32,457 nt of DNA from Micavibrio sp. (lineage in GTDB: Bacteria; Pseudomonadota; Alphaproteobacteria; Micavibrionales; Micavibrionaceae): positions 1-32,457 of the forward strand of contig JAHQVU010000038.1 in assembly GCA_019634145.1 (NCBI GenBank), written 5' to 3'. Under the pieces are notes generated by a model, which worked only from the letters and a program-made list of their open reading frames with translations, was not told the DNA's origin and did no database searches. The translations under genes were made by a program, and so were the position numbers. Positions within the stretch are counted from its first letter, which is position 1, and every line of letters begins with the position of its first letter. Shown here in pieces: positions 2,290-21,900 of the stretch.

Positions 2290-2832
2290 TTATGGCTTGA
2301 GTTTGTAGAGGACAAAGCGCCCTAATGGGTGGCCAACGCGAAGAGCAGGATAATCGAAATCTTTACCTTTTTGGTATTTGAAACCCATTTTTTCCATGAG
2401 GTGAATGGTGCGGGAATTGTCATAGACCGTGAAGGCCACCAGCTCTTTAAGCTTAAGGTTATTAAAGGCGTGATCTATTACGGCGCGTGCGGCCTCCGAG
2501 CCGAATCCTTTGCCCCAATATTCATAATCTATTCGCCATGCAAGCCCGACGGCAGGGGTGAAAGATGCCTCGAAATCAACATTATGAAGACCGGTGAACC
2601 CTACGAATTCGCTGGTTTCTTTTTCTTCTATGACATAGAGGCCATAGCCGTGTTTTTTGAAGTCCTTTTGGAATTCTTTCATATGGCGTTTCGTTGCTTT
2701 TTTGTCCAGTACGCGCGGTAGGTACTGCATGACGAGCGGGTCGGCATTCAAGCGGGCGAAGGGTTCAAGATCACGATCTTCCCATTCGCGAAGGATTAAG
2801 CGGTCAGTTTCAAGGTGGATGTTTTTGTTCAT
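2290..2832 (-). CDS. GNAT-family N-acetyltransferase, RimJ/RimL-like
   Basis: The protein belongs to the acetyl-CoA-dependent GNAT superfamily, in the branch used for ribosomal proteins and small molecules (Acetyltransf_3). Seen are the opening ETDRLILREWEDRDLEPFARLN, the central strand AVGLAWRIDYEYWGKGFGSEAARA, which contains the acetyl-CoA loop, and the late NSRTIHLMEKMGF segment typical of this branch. Start: an upstream GTG at 2847 is possible, but ATG 2832 has an AAGAG-type ribosome site just before it, giving 180 residues. The substrate cannot be told from sequence. The gene stands alone between a lipoprotein and a MarR-like regulator, all on the minus strand. Confidence 0.88.
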   Translation of the reverse strand: MNKNIHLETDRLILREWEDRDLEPFARLNADPLVMQYLPRVLDKKATKRHMKEFQKDFKKHGYGLYVIEEKETSEFVGFTGLHNVDFEASFTPAVGLAWRIDYEYWGKGFGSEAARAVIDHAFNNLKLKELVAFTVYDNSRTIHLMEKMGFKYQKGKDFDYPALRVGHPLGRFVLYKLKP

Positions 2833-2920
2833 GAATCTCTTATACACGTCCGCGTGATAAAAGGGGAGTCGGATTATGCCGATTGGTAAGACTATCCAAA
2901 TAGTTTGTAAGCCGCTTTTT

Positions 2921-3247
2921 TTATGCGGCTATGATTCCTGATATGGAGTTTAAAGTGTTGCGCCCTTTAGGGGAGAGGTAGAGCTCTTTTTTGCGTTTTT
3001 CGGTCTCGGATGTGCGTACTTCAACCAGTTCGTAAGCCTGCCCGCGTTGGCGAGAGTTTGAGAGTGCGCCGATAATGCGTGAGATAGTTGAAATGCTTAG
3101 GCCGGTATTGTTCGATAGATCTGTTAGGGACATTCCCTCATTCAATGAAATCTCAGCCAGGCATATGGCATAGTGAAGTGGGAATTCGGGATCTAGTTTC
3201 TGCAACTCATGCAGTATTTTTAAAAAGTCTTTTACTTCTGTTTCCAT
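2921..3247 (-). CDS. MarR-like winged-helix transcription regulator (short)
   Basis: The 108-residue protein has a helical start (LHELQKLDPEFPLHYAICLAEI), a helix-turn-helix (GMSLTDLSNNTGLSISTISRIIGALS) and a wing reading ELVEVRTSETEKRKKELYLSPKG, the usual MarR order with the conserved basic residues and the L-(S/T)-P-KG turn. It lacks the long C-terminal dimerisation helices of full MarR proteins (about 140 residues), so it is a short form. ATG 3247 is preferred over the TTG two codons upstream. Its leader holds a palindromic element (3273-3296), which suggests self-regulation. Target genes are unknown; the neighbouring GNAT and pentapeptide genes are possible. Confidence 0.78.
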   Translation of the reverse strand: METEVKDFLKILHELQKLDPEFPLHYAICLAEISLNEGMSLTDLSNNTGLSISTISRIIGALSNSRQRGQAYELVEVRTSETEKRKKELYLSPKGRNTLNSISGIIAA

Positions 3248-11343: not shown

Positions 11344-12237
11344 TTAAGCGGATTTTGACGCTTTATCGTCGTCATCCTCTTCGATTTCCAGATCGGTGTA
11401 ATCGGCCTCGACTACATCATCATCACTGGCAGTTGCGGCGTCGGCAGGCTCGTCACTGTCGGCATCGCCTGCAGCGTCTTCTTGTGCCTTGCGATAGGCC
11501 AACTCACCTAGTTTCATCGCAGCCTGAGACAGTTCATCAGTCTTGGCTTTGATCGCTTCCGGGTCGTCGCCATCGATAACCTCTTTAAGCTCGGCAATCG
11601 CGGTTTCGATATTGGATTTTTCTTCCTCGGGTACATCATCGCCGAACTCTTCCATCGATTTTTCAGTCGAATGTATCATGCTTTCAGCCTGATTTCTCGC
11701 TTCAACGCTTTCGCGTTTTTTCTTGTCGGTGTCCGCGTTGGCTTCGGCATCCTTAACCATTTGATCAATGTCATCATCGGATAGACCGCCGCTCGCTTGA
11801 ATGCGGATTTGCTGTTCCTTATTCGTAGCTTTGTCTTTAGCGGAAACCTGAACGATACCGTTCGCATCAATGTCGAAGGTCACTTCAACTTGCGGAATGC
11901 CGCGTGGGGCAGGTGGGATACCGACAAGGTCGAACTGACCGAGTATTTTGTTGTCTGCGGCCATTTCGCGCTCACCCTGGAATACGCGGATTGTCACGGC
12001 GTTCTGGTTATCCTCGGCAGTCGAGAAGACCTGAGACTTTTTTGTCGGGATTGTCGTATTGCGCTCGATGAGGCGTGTGAACACGCCGCCCAAGGTTTCG
12101 ATACCAAGAGATAGTGGTGTAACATCCAGCAAGAGAACGTCTTTAACGTCACCTTGAAGAACGCCGCCCTGAATGGCTGCACCATCGGCAACAACTTCAT
12201 CAGGGTTAACACCTTTGTGTGGTTCTTTACCGAAGTA
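11344..12237 (-). CDS. dnaK: DnaK, C-terminal part after an in-frame stop
   Basis: This is the continuation, in the same frame, of the DnaK reading that stops at 12238-12240. It starts [21 protein letters not shown], which ends the ATPase domain. Next come the interdomain linker region [15 protein letters not shown], the peptide-binding beta-sandwich ([58 protein letters not shown]), the helical lid and an acidic tail. There is no ATG after the stop. The first possible start is TTG 12132, which would lose the last part of the ATPase domain, so a separate functional product is unlikely. With the N-terminal part it makes a normal-length 647-codon gene. Confidence 0.93.
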
Positions 12238-13287
12238 TTACTCAACGGTTTTGATCACCTTCGGCATACGGGTCATACCACCAACCAAAACGATATCATC
12301 AATCTCGGATGGTTTCAGGCCAGCATCTTTCAACGCCTTTTTAACCGGATCGATTGAGCGCTTGATGAGGTCATCAACAAGGCTTTCAAGTTTAGAGCGT
12401 GAAAGTGTGATTTGAAGGTGTTTCGGGCCGGACGCATCAGCGGTAACGAATGGCAGGTTCACTTCTGTGGTCTGTGAAGATGAAAGCTCAATCTTCGCTT
12501 TTTCAGCGGCTTCTTTCAGGCGCTGAAGTGCGAGCTTGTCTTCACGAAGGTCGATGCCATCGGACTTTTTGAATTCATCAGCGAGATATTCGATGATACG
12601 TGTGTCAAAGTCTTCACCGCCAAGGAATGTGTCACCGTTGGTTGATTTCACTTCGAATACGCCGTCGCCGATTTCAAGGACAGATACGTCGAATGTACCA
12701 CCACCCAAATCGTAAACCACGATTGTACCGGAAGATTTTTTATCCAGACCATAGGCTAGCGCAGCGGCTGTGGGTTCGTTGATAATACGCTCTACATCGA
12801 GGCCGGCGATTTTACCGGCATCTTTTGTTGCTTGACGCTGGGCATCGTTAAAGTAAGCAGGAACGGTAATCACTGCTTTGCTTACTTTTTCGCCTAAGAA
12901 ATCTTCGGCAGTTTCTTTCATTTTTTGCAAGATCATCGCAGAGATTTCGGATGGGGATTTTTTCTCGCCGTCAACTTCCACCCACGCATCGCCGTTGGGG
13001 CCTTCTACGATGTGGAAGGGGGCTTTTTTCGCCATATCCTGAACTTGCGCGTCTTTAAATGTGCGGCCGATCAAGCGCTTTACAGCGTAAAGTGTGTTAT
13101 TAGGGTTTGTTACAGCCTGACGTTTGGCGGGCTGGCCGACGAGGCGCTCACCATCTTTTGTAAAGGCTACCATTGAAGGGGTGGTTCTTGCGCCTTCCGC
13201 ATTTTCAAGGATGCGGGCTTCTTTGCCGTCCATAACGGCTACACAAGAGTTGGTTGTACCAAGGTCAATACCAATGATTTTAGACAT
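12238..13287 (-). CDS. dnaK: DnaK, N-terminal ATPase part ending at a premature TAA
   Basis: Hsp70 chaperone. Residues 1-349 hold most of the nucleotide-binding domain: [14 protein letters not shown] (phosphate 1), [53 protein letters not shown] (phosphate 2) and [14 protein letters not shown] (adenosine). The frame then reads KTVE-stop-YFGKEP, where relatives have a glutamate or similar residue, so a single GAA-to-TAA change would explain it. The ribosome site AAGGAG is well placed before ATG 13287. Upstream lie grpE and a leader with a palindromic repeat and a hairpin. If the stop is real, no complete DnaK would be made without read-through or a second copy elsewhere. Confidence 0.95.
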
Positions 13288-15485: not shown

Positions 15486-16205
15486 ATGACCAGACCTTCA
15501 GGGCGTAGCGGCGATCAAATGCGTAAGATCGAAGTGATTAAGGATATTTCCAAACACGCGGAAGGATCTTGCATGATCAAATTCGGCGATACGCACGTGC
15601 TGTGTACGGCCAGTGTCGAAGAAAAGGTTCCGGGCTGGATGCGTAATACGGGCAGTGGTTGGGTTACGGCGGAATATGGGATGCTACCGCGCTCGACCGG
15701 AAGTCGTATGGACCGTGAGGCGGCCAGAGGAAAGCAATCTGGCAGGACTCAAGAAATTCAACGTCTTATTGGGCGTTCTTTGCGCGCGGTCGTGGATATG
15801 CAAGCGCTGGGTGAGCGTCAGGTGCGAATCGATTGTGATGTGATACAAGCCGATGGCGGAACGCGCACGGCGGCGATTACGGGTGGTTTTATTGCGATGC
15901 ATTTGGCGTTTCAGCATTTGGTAAATATTGGTTTGTTGGCGGCGGTTCCTGTTAAGGACACGGTAAGCGCGATTTCATGCGGTGTGTTTGAAGGGCAACC
16001 TGTGCTTGATCTGGATTATGATGAGGATTCAGCGGCTGATACGGATGCGAACTTCGTGATTACGGGTAATAGCGGTATTTGTGAAATTCAAGGTACTGCG
16101 GAGAAAGAGCCCTTTAGTGAGGATGAGTTTTTGAAGTTGCTCGGGCTGGCGAAAAAGGGTTGTTCTGAGCTGACGGCAGTGCAAAAAGACGTTTTGGAGC
16201 TTTGA
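15486..16205 (+). CDS. rph: RNase PH
   Basis: Phosphorolytic 3'-5' exoribonuclease that trims tRNA 3' ends. The chosen start ATG 15486 gives [17 protein letters not shown], the standard beginning, and has AAGGAT before it; the longer frame from 15414 adds an unrelated 24-residue stretch. Conserved parts seen: [63 protein letters not shown] (active site, phosphate and RNA binding) and [21 protein letters not shown]. The length is 239. rdgB begins three bases after its stop, so the two form an operon, a pairing common in alphaproteobacteria. Confidence 0.97.
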
Positions 16206-16208
16206 TTT

Positions 16209-16832
16209 ATGGGGCGGATTTTTGAAGCGACCGAGCTGGTGATTGCCACGCATAATGCGGGTAAGGTTCGCGAGATAAAGGATTTGCTGAAGTCTTATTC
16301 GGCGGGCGTTACATTCTTTAGTGCGGGTGATCTGGGTTTGCCCGAGCCAGAGGAGACGGGCAAGACTTTCATTGAAAATGCGGAGTTAAAGGCGCAGGCG
16401 TCGGCTCGTGCATCAGGTAAGGTCTCGTTGGCCGATGATAGTGGTTTATCTGTTTATGCCTTGAACGGTGATCCTGGGATTTATTCGGCGCGCTGGGCGA
16501 TAAATGATGAGGGTAGTCGCGATTTTTCTCTCGCTATGCGGCGTGTCGAAGAGGCGCTGGGCGAGGTCGAAGATCGCAGGGCGGCTTTTATATGTGTGTT
16601 GTCATTGGCGTGGCCGGATGGTCATGTCGAGAGTTTTGAGGGGCGCGTTGAGGGCACTCTCGAGTTCCCGCCGCGCGGTGATAAGGGCTTTGGCTATGAC
16701 CCGATTTTTGTACCTTCGGGGTATGAAATGAGCTTTGCCGAGATGGAGCCGGATGCCAAACATGCGATTTCTCATCGCGCTGACGCGTTTGAAAAAATCA
16801 CCGGTGCTTGCTTTGAAATGGGCGGCAATTAG
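16209..16832 (+). CDS. rdgB: RdgB, non-canonical purine NTP pyrophosphatase (XTP/dITP diphosphatase)
   Basis: HAM1-family enzyme that removes dITP, XTP and similar deaminated nucleotides from the pool. Motifs in order: [11 protein letters not shown] (13-23), [45 protein letters not shown] and [11 protein letters not shown]. The length of 207 is normal. The ribosome site GGAG lies within the last rph codons, which supports translational coupling. The next gene, IcmD/DotP-like, has its own strong promoter. Confidence 0.97.
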
Positions 16833-16894: not shown

Positions 16895-16924
16895 TTGACA
16901 GTGAGCATGGAATCCACGTATATA
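16895..16924 (+). promoter_or_regulatory. Strong promoter for the IcmD/DotP-like gene
   Basis: A perfect TTGACA (16895-16900) is followed after 18 bases by TATATA (16919-16924), with TATACT overlapping it. A good ribosome site (AAGGAG, 16964-16969) stands ahead of the ATG at 16978. Together with the gene's distinctive codon choice this suggests high, separate expression. Confidence 0.65.
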
Positions 16925-16977
16925 CTAGCCACAATTAAATGACGCTTAATGGAGAGCGGAATTAAGGAGATTTGAAA

Positions 16978-17379
16978 ATGATCAAGAATATCAAAATTAA
17001 AATGATGGCCGCGCAAGCAGCATTCGTAGTAGGTATGATGGCTGATAGCGCGAACGCAGCGGGTACAGTGCAAGGTAACAACTGGAGCACAGTATCACAG
17101 AACATTGCAGGATCTATGGAAGAGCTTCCAGGTTTGATTGCTTCTATCTCATACCTTGTTGGTATGCTGATGGGTGTTTTGGGTGTTGTGAAAATCAAAG
17201 ACCACGTTGAGAACCCAACACAAACACCAATGCGTGAAGGCGCTGTTCGTTTGGCAGCCGGTGGTGCATTATTCGCGCTTCCAATGATGTTCGAAGCGAT
17301 GCAGAACACAATCGGTACAACCACTGTACAGGTTGGTCCTGCACAGTTGAACCGTGCTACATTCTCACTGAACAACTAG
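16978..17379 (+). CDS. IcmD/DotP-like type IVB secretion membrane protein (lone copy)
   Basis: 133 residues. An N-terminal signal-like helix ends near SANAAG (about residue 26). After a short polar part there are two membrane helices, LIASISYLVGMLMGVLGVV and LAAGGALFALPMMFEAM, joined by KIKDHVENPTQTPMREGA. The pattern Y-x2-G ... K-x-K-x-H-x2-NPTQ-x-P ... G-A-L-x2-LP is that of the IcmD/DotP family, small inner-membrane parts of Dot/Icm (type IVB) secretion and of IncI-type conjugation. The start used is ATG 16978 with AAGGAG before it. Codon choice (many AAC, ACA and GAA) differs from its neighbours and fits high expression. No other Dot/Icm gene is in the window. The family call rests on motif recall. 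Confidence 0.68.
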   Translation: MIKNIKIKMMAAQAAFVVGMMADSANAAGTVQGNNWSTVSQNIAGSMEELPGLIASISYLVGMLMGVLGVVKIKDHVENPTQTPMREGAVRLAAGGALFALPMMFEAMQNTIGTTTVQVGPAQLNRATFSLNN

Positions 17380-17393
17380 TTCTTAGCCGAGAT

Positions 17394-18551
17394 ATGACAG
17401 AATTAGGCCAGATGGGTATTTATATCCACTGGCCTTTTTGTTTGTCCAAATGCCCATATTGCGACTTTAACGTCCATGTGCGATCCGAGATTGACCATGC
17501 GCGTTGGCGGGCGGCCTATGTCAGGGCGCTGGAACATTATCAATCCATGACAAGGGGGCGCATTGTGCGCTCTATCTTTTTTGGTGGCGGTACGCCTTCG
17601 ACTATGCAGCCGGAAACGGTGGGGGCGATTATTGATGCTGTGCGAAAATTATGGCCATGCGTGAATGACCTTGAGGTCACGCTGGAGGCCAATCCGACAT
17701 CAGTGGAAATCGATAAGTTCAGGGCGTTTCGCGAGGCGGGTGTTAACCGTGTGTCGATTGGCGTGCAATCTTTACGTGATGACGAGCTGAAGTTTTTAGG
17801 GAGGGCGCATAGCGAGGGTGAGGCGCGTAAGGCGATTGCGTTCGCGCAGGAGGTATTCGAACGCTCGAGCTTTGATCTGATCTATGCGCGGCCAAAGCAA
17901 ACATTGGATGATTGGCGTGCGGAACTGAGTGAGGCGTGTGAAATGGCAGCGGGGCATCTCTCGCTTTATCAGCTTACAATTGAGCGTAACACGCCGTTTT
18001 ATTTTGAAGAGCAGCAAGGTAAATTTTCTGTTCCGGAAGAGGGGCTTGCGGCGGATTTCTATGATCTTACACAGAGCATTTGTGCGGCGCATAACCTGCC
18101 TGCATATGAGGTGTCGAACCACGGGGCTTTGGGGCAAGAATCTGAGCATAACCTGATCTATTGGCGCTATGGTGATTATATTGGTATAGGGCCGGGCGCG
18201 CATGGGCGTTTGACTCTTATGGATGGCAAGGTCGCTATTCGTGACCATCATGCGCCAGATGTGTGGCTGGCGCGCGTTGAAGAGGCGGGGAGTGGTGCAC
18301 ATCCATTTGAGCCTCTCTTACCAAAGGATCGTTTTACCGAGTGTTTGATGATGGGATTGCGCGTTTGTGAAGGGCTGGCGCTTTCGCGTTTGAACGATCA
18401 GGGTGCAGGGGATTGGCAGGATATGGTCGATATCAAGCGCTATAAATTGTTGGAAAATGAGGGGTTTATATCGTGCAGTGATGATCGCCTTATACTCTCG
18501 CAGAGCGGAATGCTGCGTCTCAACGCGATTGTAAACTATCTTCTGAAATAG
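17394..18551 (+). CDS. hemW: HemW, radical SAM heme chaperone
   Basis: Radical SAM protein related to HemN, shown in other bacteria to deliver heme to respiratory enzymes, and often mislabelled coproporphyrinogen oxidase. The cluster motif is C-x3-C-x2-C (Cys16, 20 and 23 in HWPFCLSKCPYCDF). SAM-binding stretches are IFFGGGTPSTM, LEANP and VNRVSIGVQSL. Further HemW features are FDLIYARPKQT, SLYQLTIERNTPFY, YEVSNH and YIGIGPGAHGR. The 385-residue length is normal. It starts 14 bases after the IcmD/DotP-like gene and could share its promoter. The rph-rdgB-hemW order is common in alphaproteobacteria, and here it is interrupted by that gene. Confidence 0.95.
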   Translation: MTELGQMGIYIHWPFCLSKCPYCDFNVHVRSEIDHARWRAAYVRALEHYQSMTRGRIVRSIFFGGGTPSTMQPETVGAIIDAVRKLWPCVNDLEVTLEANPTSVEIDKFRAFREAGVNRVSIGVQSLRDDELKFLGRAHSEGEARKAIAFAQEVFERSSFDLIYARPKQTLDDWRAELSEACEMAAGHLSLYQLTIERNTPFYFEEQQGKFSVPEEGLAADFYDLTQSICAAHNLPAYEVSNHGALGQESEHNLIYWRYGDYIGIGPGAHGRLTLMDGKVAIRDHHAPDVWLARVEEAGSGAHPFEPLLPKDRFTECLMMGLRVCEGLALSRLNDQGAGDWQDMVDIKRYKLLENEGFISCSDDRLILSQSGMLRLNAIVNYLLK

Positions 18552-18556
18552 CCTGA

Positions 18557-20113
18557 TTAGAATAACTCTGCAGGGAATTTCAAATTTATGAGAAGCGGCA
18601 TAGCTGGCTTGCCATTCATTTGAATTTCGCCGCTATCGCTCATTGTAAGATCGAATTTGTGCGCGCCTGCGCCGACATTTTCGTCTGGCACGGCGATTTC
18701 TTTGAGGGCGGCCAGCGTGCCAGCGAGAGTTTTATACTCCTGAACTAGCGGGTTGTCTTCTTCTACGGCTTTTTCTTGGGCGTGAGAGAGTAGTCCATCG
18801 AGATTGGTAATGATTGTGGTCATGTTCAATCGGATGCCGTTGGTGGCCATAAGGTCGGCTTTGGCTTGGCCTTTGGACGTTATGCTGTAAAAGTCATTGC
18901 CGATTTTGCTATCCAGTGCGATGTTTGTTTCCGCTTGCGAGAGAAGGGCGGGCAGTTTGATCATCAGGCTGATCGGAGAGATTTTGTTGTTGGCGCTTAG
19001 CTCGTTACCCAGAACTTCCGCGACCTGATGTATCGGGATGTTTTGCGGTAAAATTTTGATGTCGGCGAAGGCGGGGGTAAGCTTTTCATCACCGGCATTG
19101 GAGGTCTCGTTTTTGAGGCCGCGATAGCCGATGGCAAGGGCCGAGCTGGCCTTATCCTCCAGCAAACCTTTTATACCAACGGATGCGTATGCATTATCAA
19201 GGTGGAAGCTCTCGGCATTTTTGGAGCCAATTGGCGTCATGCTCAGAATATTGCTGATCAAATCAACATCGCCTTTGGTAAAATCAAGGCCGCTGACCTG
19301 CACATTCATATCCAGCCCATTGGCGAGGGTCAGGAGCGTTTTTATCAATTTTCCAGGTTCTTGTGATTCGGGAGGGGTGGAGGCTAGCTCGCCTAATGTT
19401 TTGCGCGCTACAGCATCGAGCTGGTCTGCGTTAAAGGTCATTGTCATCTGGTTGAGCTTAAATGCGCCTTCTGATTTTGGTGAGCCGATGTTTAAGCCAT
19501 TGATGATGGTTTTGGCAGGGCCGCTCCAGCGGTCATTTGCGCCTTGCTTGATGTCGTAGTCCAGTATCGCGCTGTCGATGCTGGCTACATTGGTGCTATC
19601 AGCGAGAGTGGCGGTGATGTTTTTGTATTCGGCGTCAAGCTCTACAAATTCCTGCAGATCCTCGTGCCAGATGCCTGCTGCTTTTTGGCTGCCGATATGG
19701 TAGCTGATTTTTTTAGCGCCCGCCGCATCTGTGAGCTGGATGGGTGTGGGGATAGCCAGCGTCATATTCCAGAGTTTAGGTTTGGCGTTGGGGGTGGCGT
19801 TTATCGAGATCATGCCGATTTCGACATTTCCGGCTTGTGGTGCGCCTGCATCGTCTTTGCTTGTGTAATGCACCGTAGAGGGTGGCAAGGTGACGGCATA
19901 ATATCCGCCTGCAGGCTCAACGATAATATTGCCTTTACGCTCGATCGTGCGGTTGGACCCTGTCATTTTCGCATCTTGCTTATCAAGCATAGCTTGAAAA
20001 ACCGCTTTGAGTTGGGTTGCGCCTTGCTCGTTGATCTCGTTAGCAGCGCTAGCGCCTAAGGGGGTGAGGGTGGTGAAAGCAATGAAGGCAAACGTCAAAA
20101 GGGGGTGGCGCAT
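18557..20113 (-). CDS. Large exported protein of unknown function (518 aa)
   Basis: The start chosen is ATG 20113, which yields a Sec signal peptide (HPLLTFAFIAFTTLTPLGASA, cleavage before ANE) with GGAG upstream; a longer frame to 20239 would put 42 unrelated residues ahead of the signal. The mature protein is beta-rich, without cysteine pairs. It has repeated modules such as VEIGMISINATPNAKPKLWNM, DSAILDYDIKQGANDRW, GLDMNVQVSGLDFTKGDVDL and HKFDLTMSDSGEIQMNGKP. The lay-out resembles DUF2125/YdgA-like periplasmic proteins of Gram-negative bacteria, but I cannot confirm a family. It is convergent with hemW (five bases apart) and divergent from the next gene. Confidence 0.82.
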   Translation of the reverse strand: MRHPLLTFAFIAFTTLTPLGASAANEINEQGATQLKAVFQAMLDKQDAKMTGSNRTIERKGNIIVEPAGGYYAVTLPPSTVHYTSKDDAGAPQAGNVEIGMISINATPNAKPKLWNMTLAIPTPIQLTDAAGAKKISYHIGSQKAAGIWHEDLQEFVELDAEYKNITATLADSTNVASIDSAILDYDIKQGANDRWSGPAKTIINGLNIGSPKSEGAFKLNQMTMTFNADQLDAVARKTLGELASTPPESQEPGKLIKTLLTLANGLDMNVQVSGLDFTKGDVDLISNILSMTPIGSKNAESFHLDNAYASVGIKGLLEDKASSALAIGYRGLKNETSNAGDEKLTPAFADIKILPQNIPIHQVAEVLGNELSANNKISPISLMIKLPALLSQAETNIALDSKIGNDFYSITSKGQAKADLMATNGIRLNMTTIITNLDGLLSHAQEKAVEEDNPLVQEYKTLAGTLAALKEIAVPDENVGAGAHKFDLTMSDSGEIQMNGKPAMPLLINLKFPAELF

Positions 20114-20241
20114 ATAAAAAATCTCCATAAAGGTCATAAAGCTTAGATTAAAAAACAGCATTTGGATGGACATGTATAGTGTTTTTCTTCTATATTCGCC
20201 TTTCATTGAAACGAAAACATAGAATTTAAGGATACACATAG

Positions 20242-21495: not shown

Positions 21496-21900
21496 ATGTC
21501 ACGGTTTGCTTGCGTCCTTATCTTGGTGCTGGCGGCGATGCCGTTCAGGCTTGCTCATGCTGCCGAGTTTTCTGGCGATTATCTGATGCAGATGTGCTTA
21601 TCGGATAAACAGGGGGGCGAGTTGGTGCCCGGTGCGCATAATGCGTGTCAGTCATACATCGCGGGGGTCATGGATTATCACAATTTGATCAAATCGCTGG
21701 GTACATCACCGAGTGTGGAGTTCTGTGTGCCGGAGGGGACGCCGCTGAATGATATTCAGCGCAAGATTGCGACTTACCTCTATCGTCATAAGCATTCGCA
21801 AGGGCCGTTTATTGCTGCGCCCGCAGTTGCGCTGGGGCTAAATCAATATTATCCGTGTAATAAGGCGGGTAAGCCAGCGAAGAAGAAAAAGCCGCAATAG
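21496..21900 (+). CDS. Secreted Rap1a/Tai-like domain protein
   Basis: A signal peptide ends at residue 22 or 23 (AAMPFRLAHA). The mature part has the cysteine plan of the Rap1a/Tai family: MQMCLSD (Cys34), NACQSYIAGVMD (Cys51), EFCVPEG (Cys77) and YYPCNKAG (Cys121), with the typical CQSYIxGVxD and C-P-E-G-x(6)-Q steps. In enterobacteria such proteins neutralise peptidoglycan-cutting type VI effectors, but many relatives are house-keeping periplasmic proteins with no effector beside them, as here. A basic tail ends the protein. It begins three bases after the helicase-like gene, so the two are co-transcribed. The fold call is moderate and the immunity role is not supported. Confidence 0.7.
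   Translation: MSRFACVLILVLAAMPFRLAHAAEFSGDYLMQMCLSDKQGGELVPGAHNACQSYIAGVMDYHNLIKSLGTSPSVEFCVPEGTPLNDIQRKIATYLYRHKHSQGPFIAAPAVALGLNQYYPCNKAGKPAKKKKPQ

What the first reader, a model, noticed from the sequence alone, without database searches (positions are those of the whole stretch)
16895..17379. Lone, strongly promoted IcmD/DotP-like gene between rdgB and hemW
The loop K-x-K-D-H-V-E-N-P-T-Q-T-P between two helices is the hallmark of IcmD/DotP, a part of type IVB secretion. Here it is outside any Dot/Icm cluster, splits the common rdgB-hemW pair, has a near-consensus promoter, a perfect ribosome site and codon use unlike its neighbours. Abundant expression suggests a structural, perhaps pilin-like or membrane-scaffold part of a scattered or unusual secretion machine.
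Basis: partly seen in the sequence, partly recalled or inferred. Interest (0 to 1): 0.65.

Follow-up and report, generated by a model that had tools for sequence, protein, structure and literature searches.

The report
Detached, highly expressed secretion-machine pilin-like gene
A small two-helix membrane protein, probably a building block of a type IVB secretion machine, has a second gene copy far from the rest of the machine, with its own conserved promoter and codons tuned for very high output, in bacteria related to the predator Micavibrio.

Summary
The gene is real (ATG 16978 to stop 17379, 133 aa), alone between rdgB and hemW, with its own promoter and ribosome site; its codon adaptation exceeds that of 17 ribosomal genes. 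The genome has a type IVB (Dot/Icm-type) system in separate loci: DotI-H-G-F-(IcmD)3-IcmC-IcmD-IcmJ-DotO, DotM-DotL, IcmT-DotB-DotC-DotD. The window gene is a second IcmD, 51% identical to the cluster copy. Of 30 hemW loci (own included) 13 keep rdgB-icmD-hemW; in 11 others rdgB and hemW are within about 55 nt. Detached copies form one clade (22 of 23). Nineteen of 23 have TTGAC[AT] upstream, against 1 of 55 cluster copies. The family resembles IncI TraR (PF20535) and, more weakly, VirB2/TrbC pilins; the window gene stays below the cut-offs. Best reading: a bulk-expressed TraR/VirB2-type (pilin-like) subunit of this T4BSS. T4BSS genes, paralogy, promoter conservation and codon bias are shown by computation; polymerisation and attack on other cells are inferred. 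T4BSS in this order was already noted in print; in my ten paper searches I saw nothing on the detached copy.

The parts
16978..17379 (+). detached icmD/traR-like gene (133 aa plus stop): signal-like helix 2-22 with a likely cleavage site A-N-A|A after residue 27 (by eye), helix 36-78, turn with KIKDHVENPTQTP (72-84), helix 85-113, C-terminal tail ending LNRATFSLNN
16895..16924 (+). promoter: TTGACA, 18-nt spacer, TATATA
   Evidence: TTGAC[AT] within 140 nt upstream of 19 of 23 detached genes
16964..16969 (+). ribosome-binding site AAGGAG, 8 nt before ATG
16209..16832 (+). rdgB, upstream neighbour (name from the finding and recall, not profile-tested here)
17394..18551 (+). hemW, 14 nt downstream, possibly also read from the icmD promoter (inference; name from the finding and recall, not profile-tested here)
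15516..16205 (+). rph, head of the rph-rdgB-hemW block into which the gene was inserted (coding part used here; RNase PH domains by Pfam)

Best explanation
The gene encodes a second IcmD/TraR-like subunit of the T4BSS that nearly all sampled members of this order carry. A copy of the cluster gene moved, most simply once in an ancestor of several genera of this family, into the rph-rdgB-hemW block, where it has a strong sigma-70-type promoter of its own. It works, most likely, as the bulk supply of the machine's small VirB2/TraR-type (pilin-like) subunit: exported by a signal peptide, stored in the inner membrane as a two-helix hairpin, then assembled in many copies into the tube or pilus through which the T4BSS reaches another cell, powered by DotO (VirB4-like) and DotB. 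Shown by computation: the T4BSS genes, paralogy, one clade, conserved site, conserved promoter, very high codon adaptation of this copy, and a similar bias of the cluster IcmD but of no other tested component to that extent. Inferred: inner-membrane storage, polymerisation, ATPase-driven extraction, and a role in contact with prey or host cells.
For: T4BSS in the same genome: DotI 7e-60, DotG 2e-51, DotF 1.5e-11, IcmJ 5e-28; DotH 3e-68; DotM 1e-41, DotL/TrbC 2e-115; DotB 5e-119, DotD 2e-31, IcmT 5e-19; DotC 6e-77; DotO by tblastn to plasmid TraU-type proteins over 92% or more. Cluster gene order follows IncI traM-N-O-P-Q-R-S-T-U, which puts the cluster IcmD at TraR. TraR is a strong member of PF20535 (4.5e-47); 39 of 69 family members match PF20535 (best 1.8e-5; window gene 7e-4) and 16 of 69 match TrbC/VirB2 pilin (best 1.2e-4) at E<=0.05. 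One paper classes TraQ and TraR as VirB2-family pilins; another lists TraR as R64's VirB2 and none for Dot/Icm. CAI 0.809, above 17 of 17 ribosomal genes; cluster IcmD 0.720 against 0.54-0.66 for ten other T4BSS genes. With amino-acid make-up controlled, z>2 in 14 of 21 detached and 40 of 55 cluster IcmDs; IcmJ, DotH, DotG, DotI and the IcmC fusion have medians between -0.7 and 0.7, DotO 1.4. Detached copies: 22 of 23 in one starred clade (97/85); 13 of 30 hemW loci hold it, 11 show rdgB and hemW within about 55 nt. DotO is found in 12 of the 13 genomes with the detached gene.
Against: The window gene scores 20 bits for PF20535 (27 needed) and 16.7 for TrbC (27.9 needed). In those scans unrelated families also reach up to 7 of 69 members in Pfam and 10 of 69 in NCBIfam, so the 16 of 69 for TrbC is only about twice background. 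hhalign against one TraR sequence is weak (E 0.021, probability 2) and against TraQ weaker (E 0.17). Foldseek finds no PDB match with E below 2. The Agrobacterium T-pilus subunit is only one of many middling VIA matches (8fai_A Z 4.7, 67 residues, rmsd 4.1), below pore-toxin hairpins (Z up to 8.1) and an ATP-synthase c subunit (5.5). The loop has no net charge (mean 0.07). Several T4BSS parts score below NCBIfam's equivalog cut-offs. One genome (G002, 99% complete) keeps the detached gene although DotO, DotH, the cluster IcmD and the IcmC fusion were not found; it has DotL and a DotI-like gene, so an assembly gap is likelier. The codon bias is milder in relatives, scored with this genome's weights (median z 2.2). 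Codon bias shows output, not polymerisation.
Confidence: 0.6

Rival explanations
1. IcmD is a structural inner-membrane subunit of the T4BSS, needed in many copies (a ring or scaffold round the channel), and never leaves the membrane. The detached copy tops up its supply.
For: IcmD-like units occur fused head to tail (1 to 4 recognisable repeats) to an IcmC/TraQ-like end, which suits a fixed oligomer in the membrane better than a growing fibre. No pilin fold match stands out. The fusion itself is not codon-biased (median z 0.63).
Against: PF20535 (TraR) and TrbC/VirB2 matches, the VirB2 assignment of TraR in print, and codon adaptation above ribosomal genes for the detached copy.
Confidence: 0.27
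2. The detached copy is a regulated variant subunit that swaps into the machine at one stage, such as attack or attachment, and changes its binding, like alternative pilins.
For: Its own promoter, conserved where the cluster copies lack one; a separate clade; further single copies at other sites in other genomes. A review tells of six divergent VirB2-like pilins in the T4SS locus of epibiotic Patescibacteria (passage).
Against: Most nearly invariant columns of the detached set are also nearly invariant when cluster copies are added, so no new binding surface stands out. No expression data.
Confidence: 0.25
3. The detached copy has left the T4BSS and does something else in the membrane.
For: Genome G002 keeps it although DotO and DotH were not found there; L040, which I take to be the same gene from its contig length, has a short branch (0.15).
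Against: G002 still has DotL and a DotI-like gene, so the main cluster is probably just missing from the assembly; the other 12 genomes with the detached gene all have DotO.
Confidence: 0.08

Closest known systems
TraR of IncI1 plasmids (PF20535, DUF6750; MPF_I conjugation system)
   Same: Size (134 aa); place matching that of the cluster paralogue; weak profile match over nearly the whole protein. A paper gives IncM TraR a signal sequence and three membrane segments and labels it pilin (table passage)
   Different: Window gene below the profile's cut-off; the motif KDHVENP is absent from TraR; TraR is encoded inside the tra cluster
IcmD/DotP of Dot/Icm systems
   Same: Place of the cluster paralogue between an IcmC-like protein and IcmJ, and small hydrophobic protein (Legionella order icmG-C-D-J-B recalled, not fetched)
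   Different: Not compared by sequence with Legionella IcmD; the window copy is outside the cluster and has its own promoter
VirB2/TrbC conjugative pilins
   Same: Layout of signal-like helix, two helices and short turn; weak profile matches in 16 of 69 members; T-pilus subunit aligned over 67 of 68 residues
   Different: No significant fold match; polymerisation untested
IcmC/DotV-like gene of Legionella adelaidensis (names recalled)
   Same: A T4BSS-type small membrane protein with no annotated T4BSS gene in the 10 kb around it; its first half matches the IcmD profile (hhalign E 2.9e-7, probability 93)
   Different: IcmC-like length (176 aa) and another genomic context

Membership tests
TraR family (PF20535) | Profile match above the curated cut-off | tested here: not met
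   Window gene 20 bits against 27 needed (E 7e-4, residues 4-120); 39 of 69 family members match at E<=0.05, best 1.8e-5. The 611-aa IcmD-IcmC fusion of the same genome passes (30.9 bits). So I call the window gene TraR-like, not a PF20535 member.
IcmD/DotP | Sequence similarity to IcmD/DotP of a characterised Dot/Icm system | not tested
   No such sequence was fetched; NCBIfam gave no IcmD model hit at E<=1 for the window gene
IcmD/DotP | Encoded between icmC and icmJ in the T4BSS cluster | tested here: not met
   Window gene lies between rdgB and hemW. Its 51% identical paralogue on contig C11 meets it. So I call the window gene an IcmD paralogue, not the icmD of the cluster.
IcmD/DotP | Co-occurrence with a T4BSS | tested here: met
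   Own genome. DotO in 36 of 37 and DotH in 33 of 37 genomes, own included; G002 lacks both.
IcmD/DotP | Small exported protein with two hydrophobic helices | tested here: met
   AlphaFold2 helices 2-22, 36-78, 85-113, mean pLDDT 77; prediction only, export judged by eye. A 19-residue hydropathy window passes 1.6 only in the first long helix.
VirB2/TrbC pilins | Profile match above cut-off | tested here: not met
   Window gene 16.7 bits against 27.9; 16 of 69 members match at E<=0.05, best 1.2e-4
VirB2/TrbC pilins | Pilin fold | tested here: inconclusive
   8fai_A Z 4.7, 67 residues aligned, rmsd 4.1, within the noise
VirB2/TrbC pilins | Assembles into a filament | not testable with these tools
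   Needs biochemistry or cryo-EM
Dot/Icm-type T4BSS (the machine) | DotB, DotC, DotD, DotG, DotH, DotI, DotL, DotM, DotO | tested here: met
   All found in the own genome over contigs C11, C39 and C66, with a second DotI-like gene on C70. Over curated cut-offs: DotI, DotH, DotC, DotD, IcmT and the DotG TrbI domain; below NCBIfam equivalog cut-offs: DotB, DotF, DotG, DotL, DotM, IcmJ. DotO by position, a weak VirB4 match and tblastn. DotA and IcmX not tested.

The most novel reading that the evidence does not exclude
Dot/Icm-type machines do have a pilin, IcmD/DotP, and this family of Micavibrio-like bacteria runs its machine as a pilus-bearing weapon: bulk pilin comes from a detached, very strongly expressed gene; ready-made strings of one to four pilin units fused to IcmC seed or cap the structure; and in some genomes a VWA protein encoded next to a sigma-factor-like gene displays the pilin's own two ends to sense or bind the structure.
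Probability: 0.2. Interest if true: 0.82.

Novelty: new variant of a known kind. Interest (0 to 1): 0.58.

Why it matters
A recent reference table gives TraR as R64's VirB2 and leaves the VirB2 row empty for Dot/Icm (PMC12624023, passage). A second IcmD gene, with the highest codon adaptation of 46 coding stretches scored in its genome and kept at one site in seven genera, gives a separate handle on that gap: it can be removed or tagged without touching the T4BSS operon. [quoted passage not shown] aeruginosavorus holds the cluster (L100); ARL-13 itself was not searched. A later paper had already counted such systems in seven marine Micavibrionales (PMC9418006, passage).

Tried and rejected
PDB sequence searches with the protein, a 12-row profile and the IcmC fusion gave nothing significant (0 matches; best E 0.25; best E 1.5). 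Foldseek gave no match below E 2, and the VIA second look only middling hairpins. The model of a triple-repeat fusion (from L057) was poor (pLDDT 64) and was not searched. I considered that G002 shows a T4BSS-free role for the gene and set it aside when DotL and a DotI-like gene turned up there. I considered conjugation as the machine's purpose: a MobP relaxase is found in 12 of 37 genomes at E<=1e-5, so protein delivery is likelier in most, but the own genome has a NikA-like/relaxase pair on another contig. In a sample of the phylum 2 of 397 other genomes matched. Tree limits: few columns, bootstrap not settled, weak deep forks, and one detached row (L096, long branch) falls outside the clade. 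Paper searches for IcmD+DotP+TraQ and IcmD+IcmC+IcmE+pilin found nothing; Micavibrio+Icm and Micavibrionales+secretion gave only the passing mention quoted; the search was swamped by unrelated words.

Rows dropped: the tree used 85 rows (window, own cluster copy, 83 different proteins of 95 aa or more from L037-L116), leaving out identical proteins, loci L008-L036 and fragments. The 69-row alignment left out 15 of those 83. The promoter count used the window gene and all 83 (23 detached, 55 cluster, 6 other). The codon comparisons in relatives left out the window, the 6 'other' copies and, one detached locus with fewer than two neighbours.

Full report
What is there. The window holds an intact 133-codon gene at 16978-17379, preceded by AAGGAG and by TTGACA-18-TATATA, with rdgB ending 145 nt upstream and hemW starting 14 nt downstream. 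AlphaFold2 gives a signal-like helix, two long helices (36-78 and 85-113) and a tail without secondary structure (mean pLDDT 77).

The genome carries a type IVB machine. The same genome (1.87 Mb, 87 contigs, 92% complete) has a second, 51% identical copy on contig C11 and, beside it, a 611-residue protein holding three such domains. C11 reads DotI, DotH, DotG, DotF, (IcmD)3-IcmC, IcmD, IcmJ, DotO. Other contigs hold DotM and DotL (C39), IcmT, DotB, DotC, DotD and a transglycosylase (C66), and a second DotI-like gene (C70). DotB, DotF, DotG, DotL, DotM and IcmJ score below NCBIfam's equivalog cut-offs; DotI, DotH, DotC, DotD and IcmT pass a curated cut-off. So the machine's main parts are present, scattered over several contigs. 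DotA and IcmX were not looked for.

Family. The cluster order is that of IncI traM-N-O-P-Q-R-S-T-U, so the C11 copy stands where TraR stands and the fusion where TraQ stands; the fusion's end matches TraQ (1.9e-13). TraT was not compared with IcmJ. TraR is a strong member of PF20535 (4.5e-47). Of 69 family members, 39 match PF20535 and 16 match TrbC/VirB2 pilin at E<=0.05, while unrelated families reach up to 7. In NCBIfam 8 match TraQ, 3 a pilin-like conjugal protein and 1 VirB2, while 10 match an acyl-CoA synthetase model, plainly by chance. The window gene alone stays below the cut-offs. A paper on an IncM plasmid says that TraQ and TraR are distantly homologous to VirB2 and indispensable for transfer (PMC6112013, passages); a 2025 review lists TraR as R64's VirB2 and none for Dot/Icm (PMC12624023, table passage). 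Direct fold evidence for a pilin is within the noise.

Distribution and origin. Of 37 genomes from genus to order (own included) 36 have IcmD-like matches, 36 DotO and 33 DotH. In a sample of the phylum 2 of 397 other genomes match. Record titles of related loci mostly say 'Micavibrio sp.' or 'Alphaproteobacteria bacterium', from which I infer the order Micavibrionales. Of 30 hemW loci (33 genomes had hemW matches), 13 hold IcmD between rdgB and hemW; 17 do not, and in 15 of these rdgB was found, in 11 within about 55 nt of hemW. In a tree of 85 single-domain proteins 22 of 23 detached copies form one starred set (97/85); L096, a very long branch, does not. So one move into the rph-rdgB-hemW block is the simplest account. 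A few other genomes have single copies elsewhere: beside leuC-like and helicase genes (L088), an alanine-dehydrogenase-like gene and a helicase (L109), a comM-like gene (L056) (names by eye from opening residues), and L122; L060, L082 and L095 were not placed.

Expression. TTGAC[AT] lies within 140 nt upstream of 19 of 23 detached genes (1.8 expected by shuffling), of 1 of 55 cluster genes (4.2 expected) and of 0 of 6 other copies. The reference for codon adaptation was 17 genes of the ribosomal operon round L2 (L2 by profile; the rest named by eye). The detached gene has CAI 0.809; the reference genes themselves 0.664-0.783, DnaK 0.73 and 0.68, RdgB 0.560, HemW 0.554; 0 of 2000 synonymous shuffles reach it. 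The cluster IcmD has 0.720, ten other T4BSS genes 0.54-0.66. In relatives, scored with this genome's weights, IcmD beats every neighbour tested in 20 of 22 detached and 47 of 55 cluster loci. With amino-acid make-up controlled, z exceeds 2 in 14 of 21 and 40 of 55, against 0 of 21 for RdgB, 0 of 20 for HemW, 4 of 19 for Rph, 1 of 55 for IcmJ, 14 of 53 for DotO and 6 of 50 for the fusion. By codon use, IcmD is the part of this machine made in bulk.

Mechanism. The best account is a TraR/VirB2-type subunit needed in many copies. Homology, high codon adaptation, one clade and T4BSS co-occurrence are shown by computation; polymerisation into a tube or pilus, extraction by DotO and DotB, and use against prey or host cells are inferred. 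The main rival is a many-copy inner-membrane scaffold, which the repeat fusions would suit (of 45 fusion reading frames in L037-L116, 17 have one recognisable repeat, 1 two, 25 three, 2 four; some are cut by contig ends). A stage-specific variant subunit is also open.

Counter-evidence. G002 (99% complete) keeps the detached gene while DotO, DotH, the cluster IcmD and the fusion were not found; it has DotL and a DotI-like gene, so I take it for an assembly gap. TraR similarity by hhalign to a single sequence is weak. Legionella IcmD was not compared.

Known before. A type IV system of this kind in seven marine Micavibrionales was reported in one sentence (PMC9418006, passage), whereas the Micavibrio aeruginosavorus ARL-13 genome paper reports no evidence for one (PMC3189940, passage). 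In my ten paper searches I saw nothing on the detached gene, the repeat fusions or the VWA proteins; only passages of seven papers were read, and most subscription journals are not held.

Noticed in passing
L124:7414-9537 (+), L174, L175, L176 (G002, G006, G003, G015): Proteins of 711-756 residues (L124 matches VWA-type families; the others share its N-terminus by eye; next to L124 lies a sigma-factor-like gene, by eye) carry IcmD pieces near the N-terminus: second helix and tail (profile hits 8e-10 to 1e-6), and in three of four, by eye, the mature N-terminal motif (NNFSNIASNIS-like; profile 0.004, 0.012, 2.6), in rearranged order. It looks like mimicry of the subunit's ends.
   Followed up: partly
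L006:16678-18513 (-); L078, L105 and others: IcmC/TraQ-like proteins with one to four recognisable IcmD-like repeats fused in front; the number varies across the order.
   Followed up: partly
L007:3517-4968 (+); L059:170-4051: Unknown 483-aa protein divergent from DotI, with relatives near T4BSS genes in L059, L089, L101, L103 and L106 and three tandem copies in L059. No Pfam or NCBIfam match at E 0.1.
   Followed up: no
L178:6071-7758 (+) (own genome, contig C79): NikA-like gene (just below the Pfam cut-off) followed by a MobP relaxase in the own genome; such relaxases are in 12 of 37 genomes. Possibly a mobilisable element that could use the T4BSS.
   Followed up: partly
11344-13287 (-): dnaK is split into two reading frames (349 and 262 aa) that match the two parts of HSP70: a frameshift, real or an assembly error.
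   Followed up: no
L139, about 2700-3050 (+): A distantly related genome of the same phylum (G063) has a single IcmD-like gene (E 4e-6) between a pilin-like and an smc-like gene (by eye), with no T4BSS genes recognised by my queries in the 9 kb read.
   Followed up: partly
L127:3432-6439 (-): A run of proteins of about 190-240 aa that look alike by eye, close to the T4BSS cluster in G027; function unknown.
   Followed up: no
21496-21900 (+): Rap1a-type immunity domain protein (PF18602, 6e-12) next to an ArsP-like permease.
   Followed up: no
18557-20239 (-): 560-aa protein with no Pfam match at E 1, convergent with hemW, with relatives beside hemW in three other loci (L011, L014, L029).
   Followed up: no
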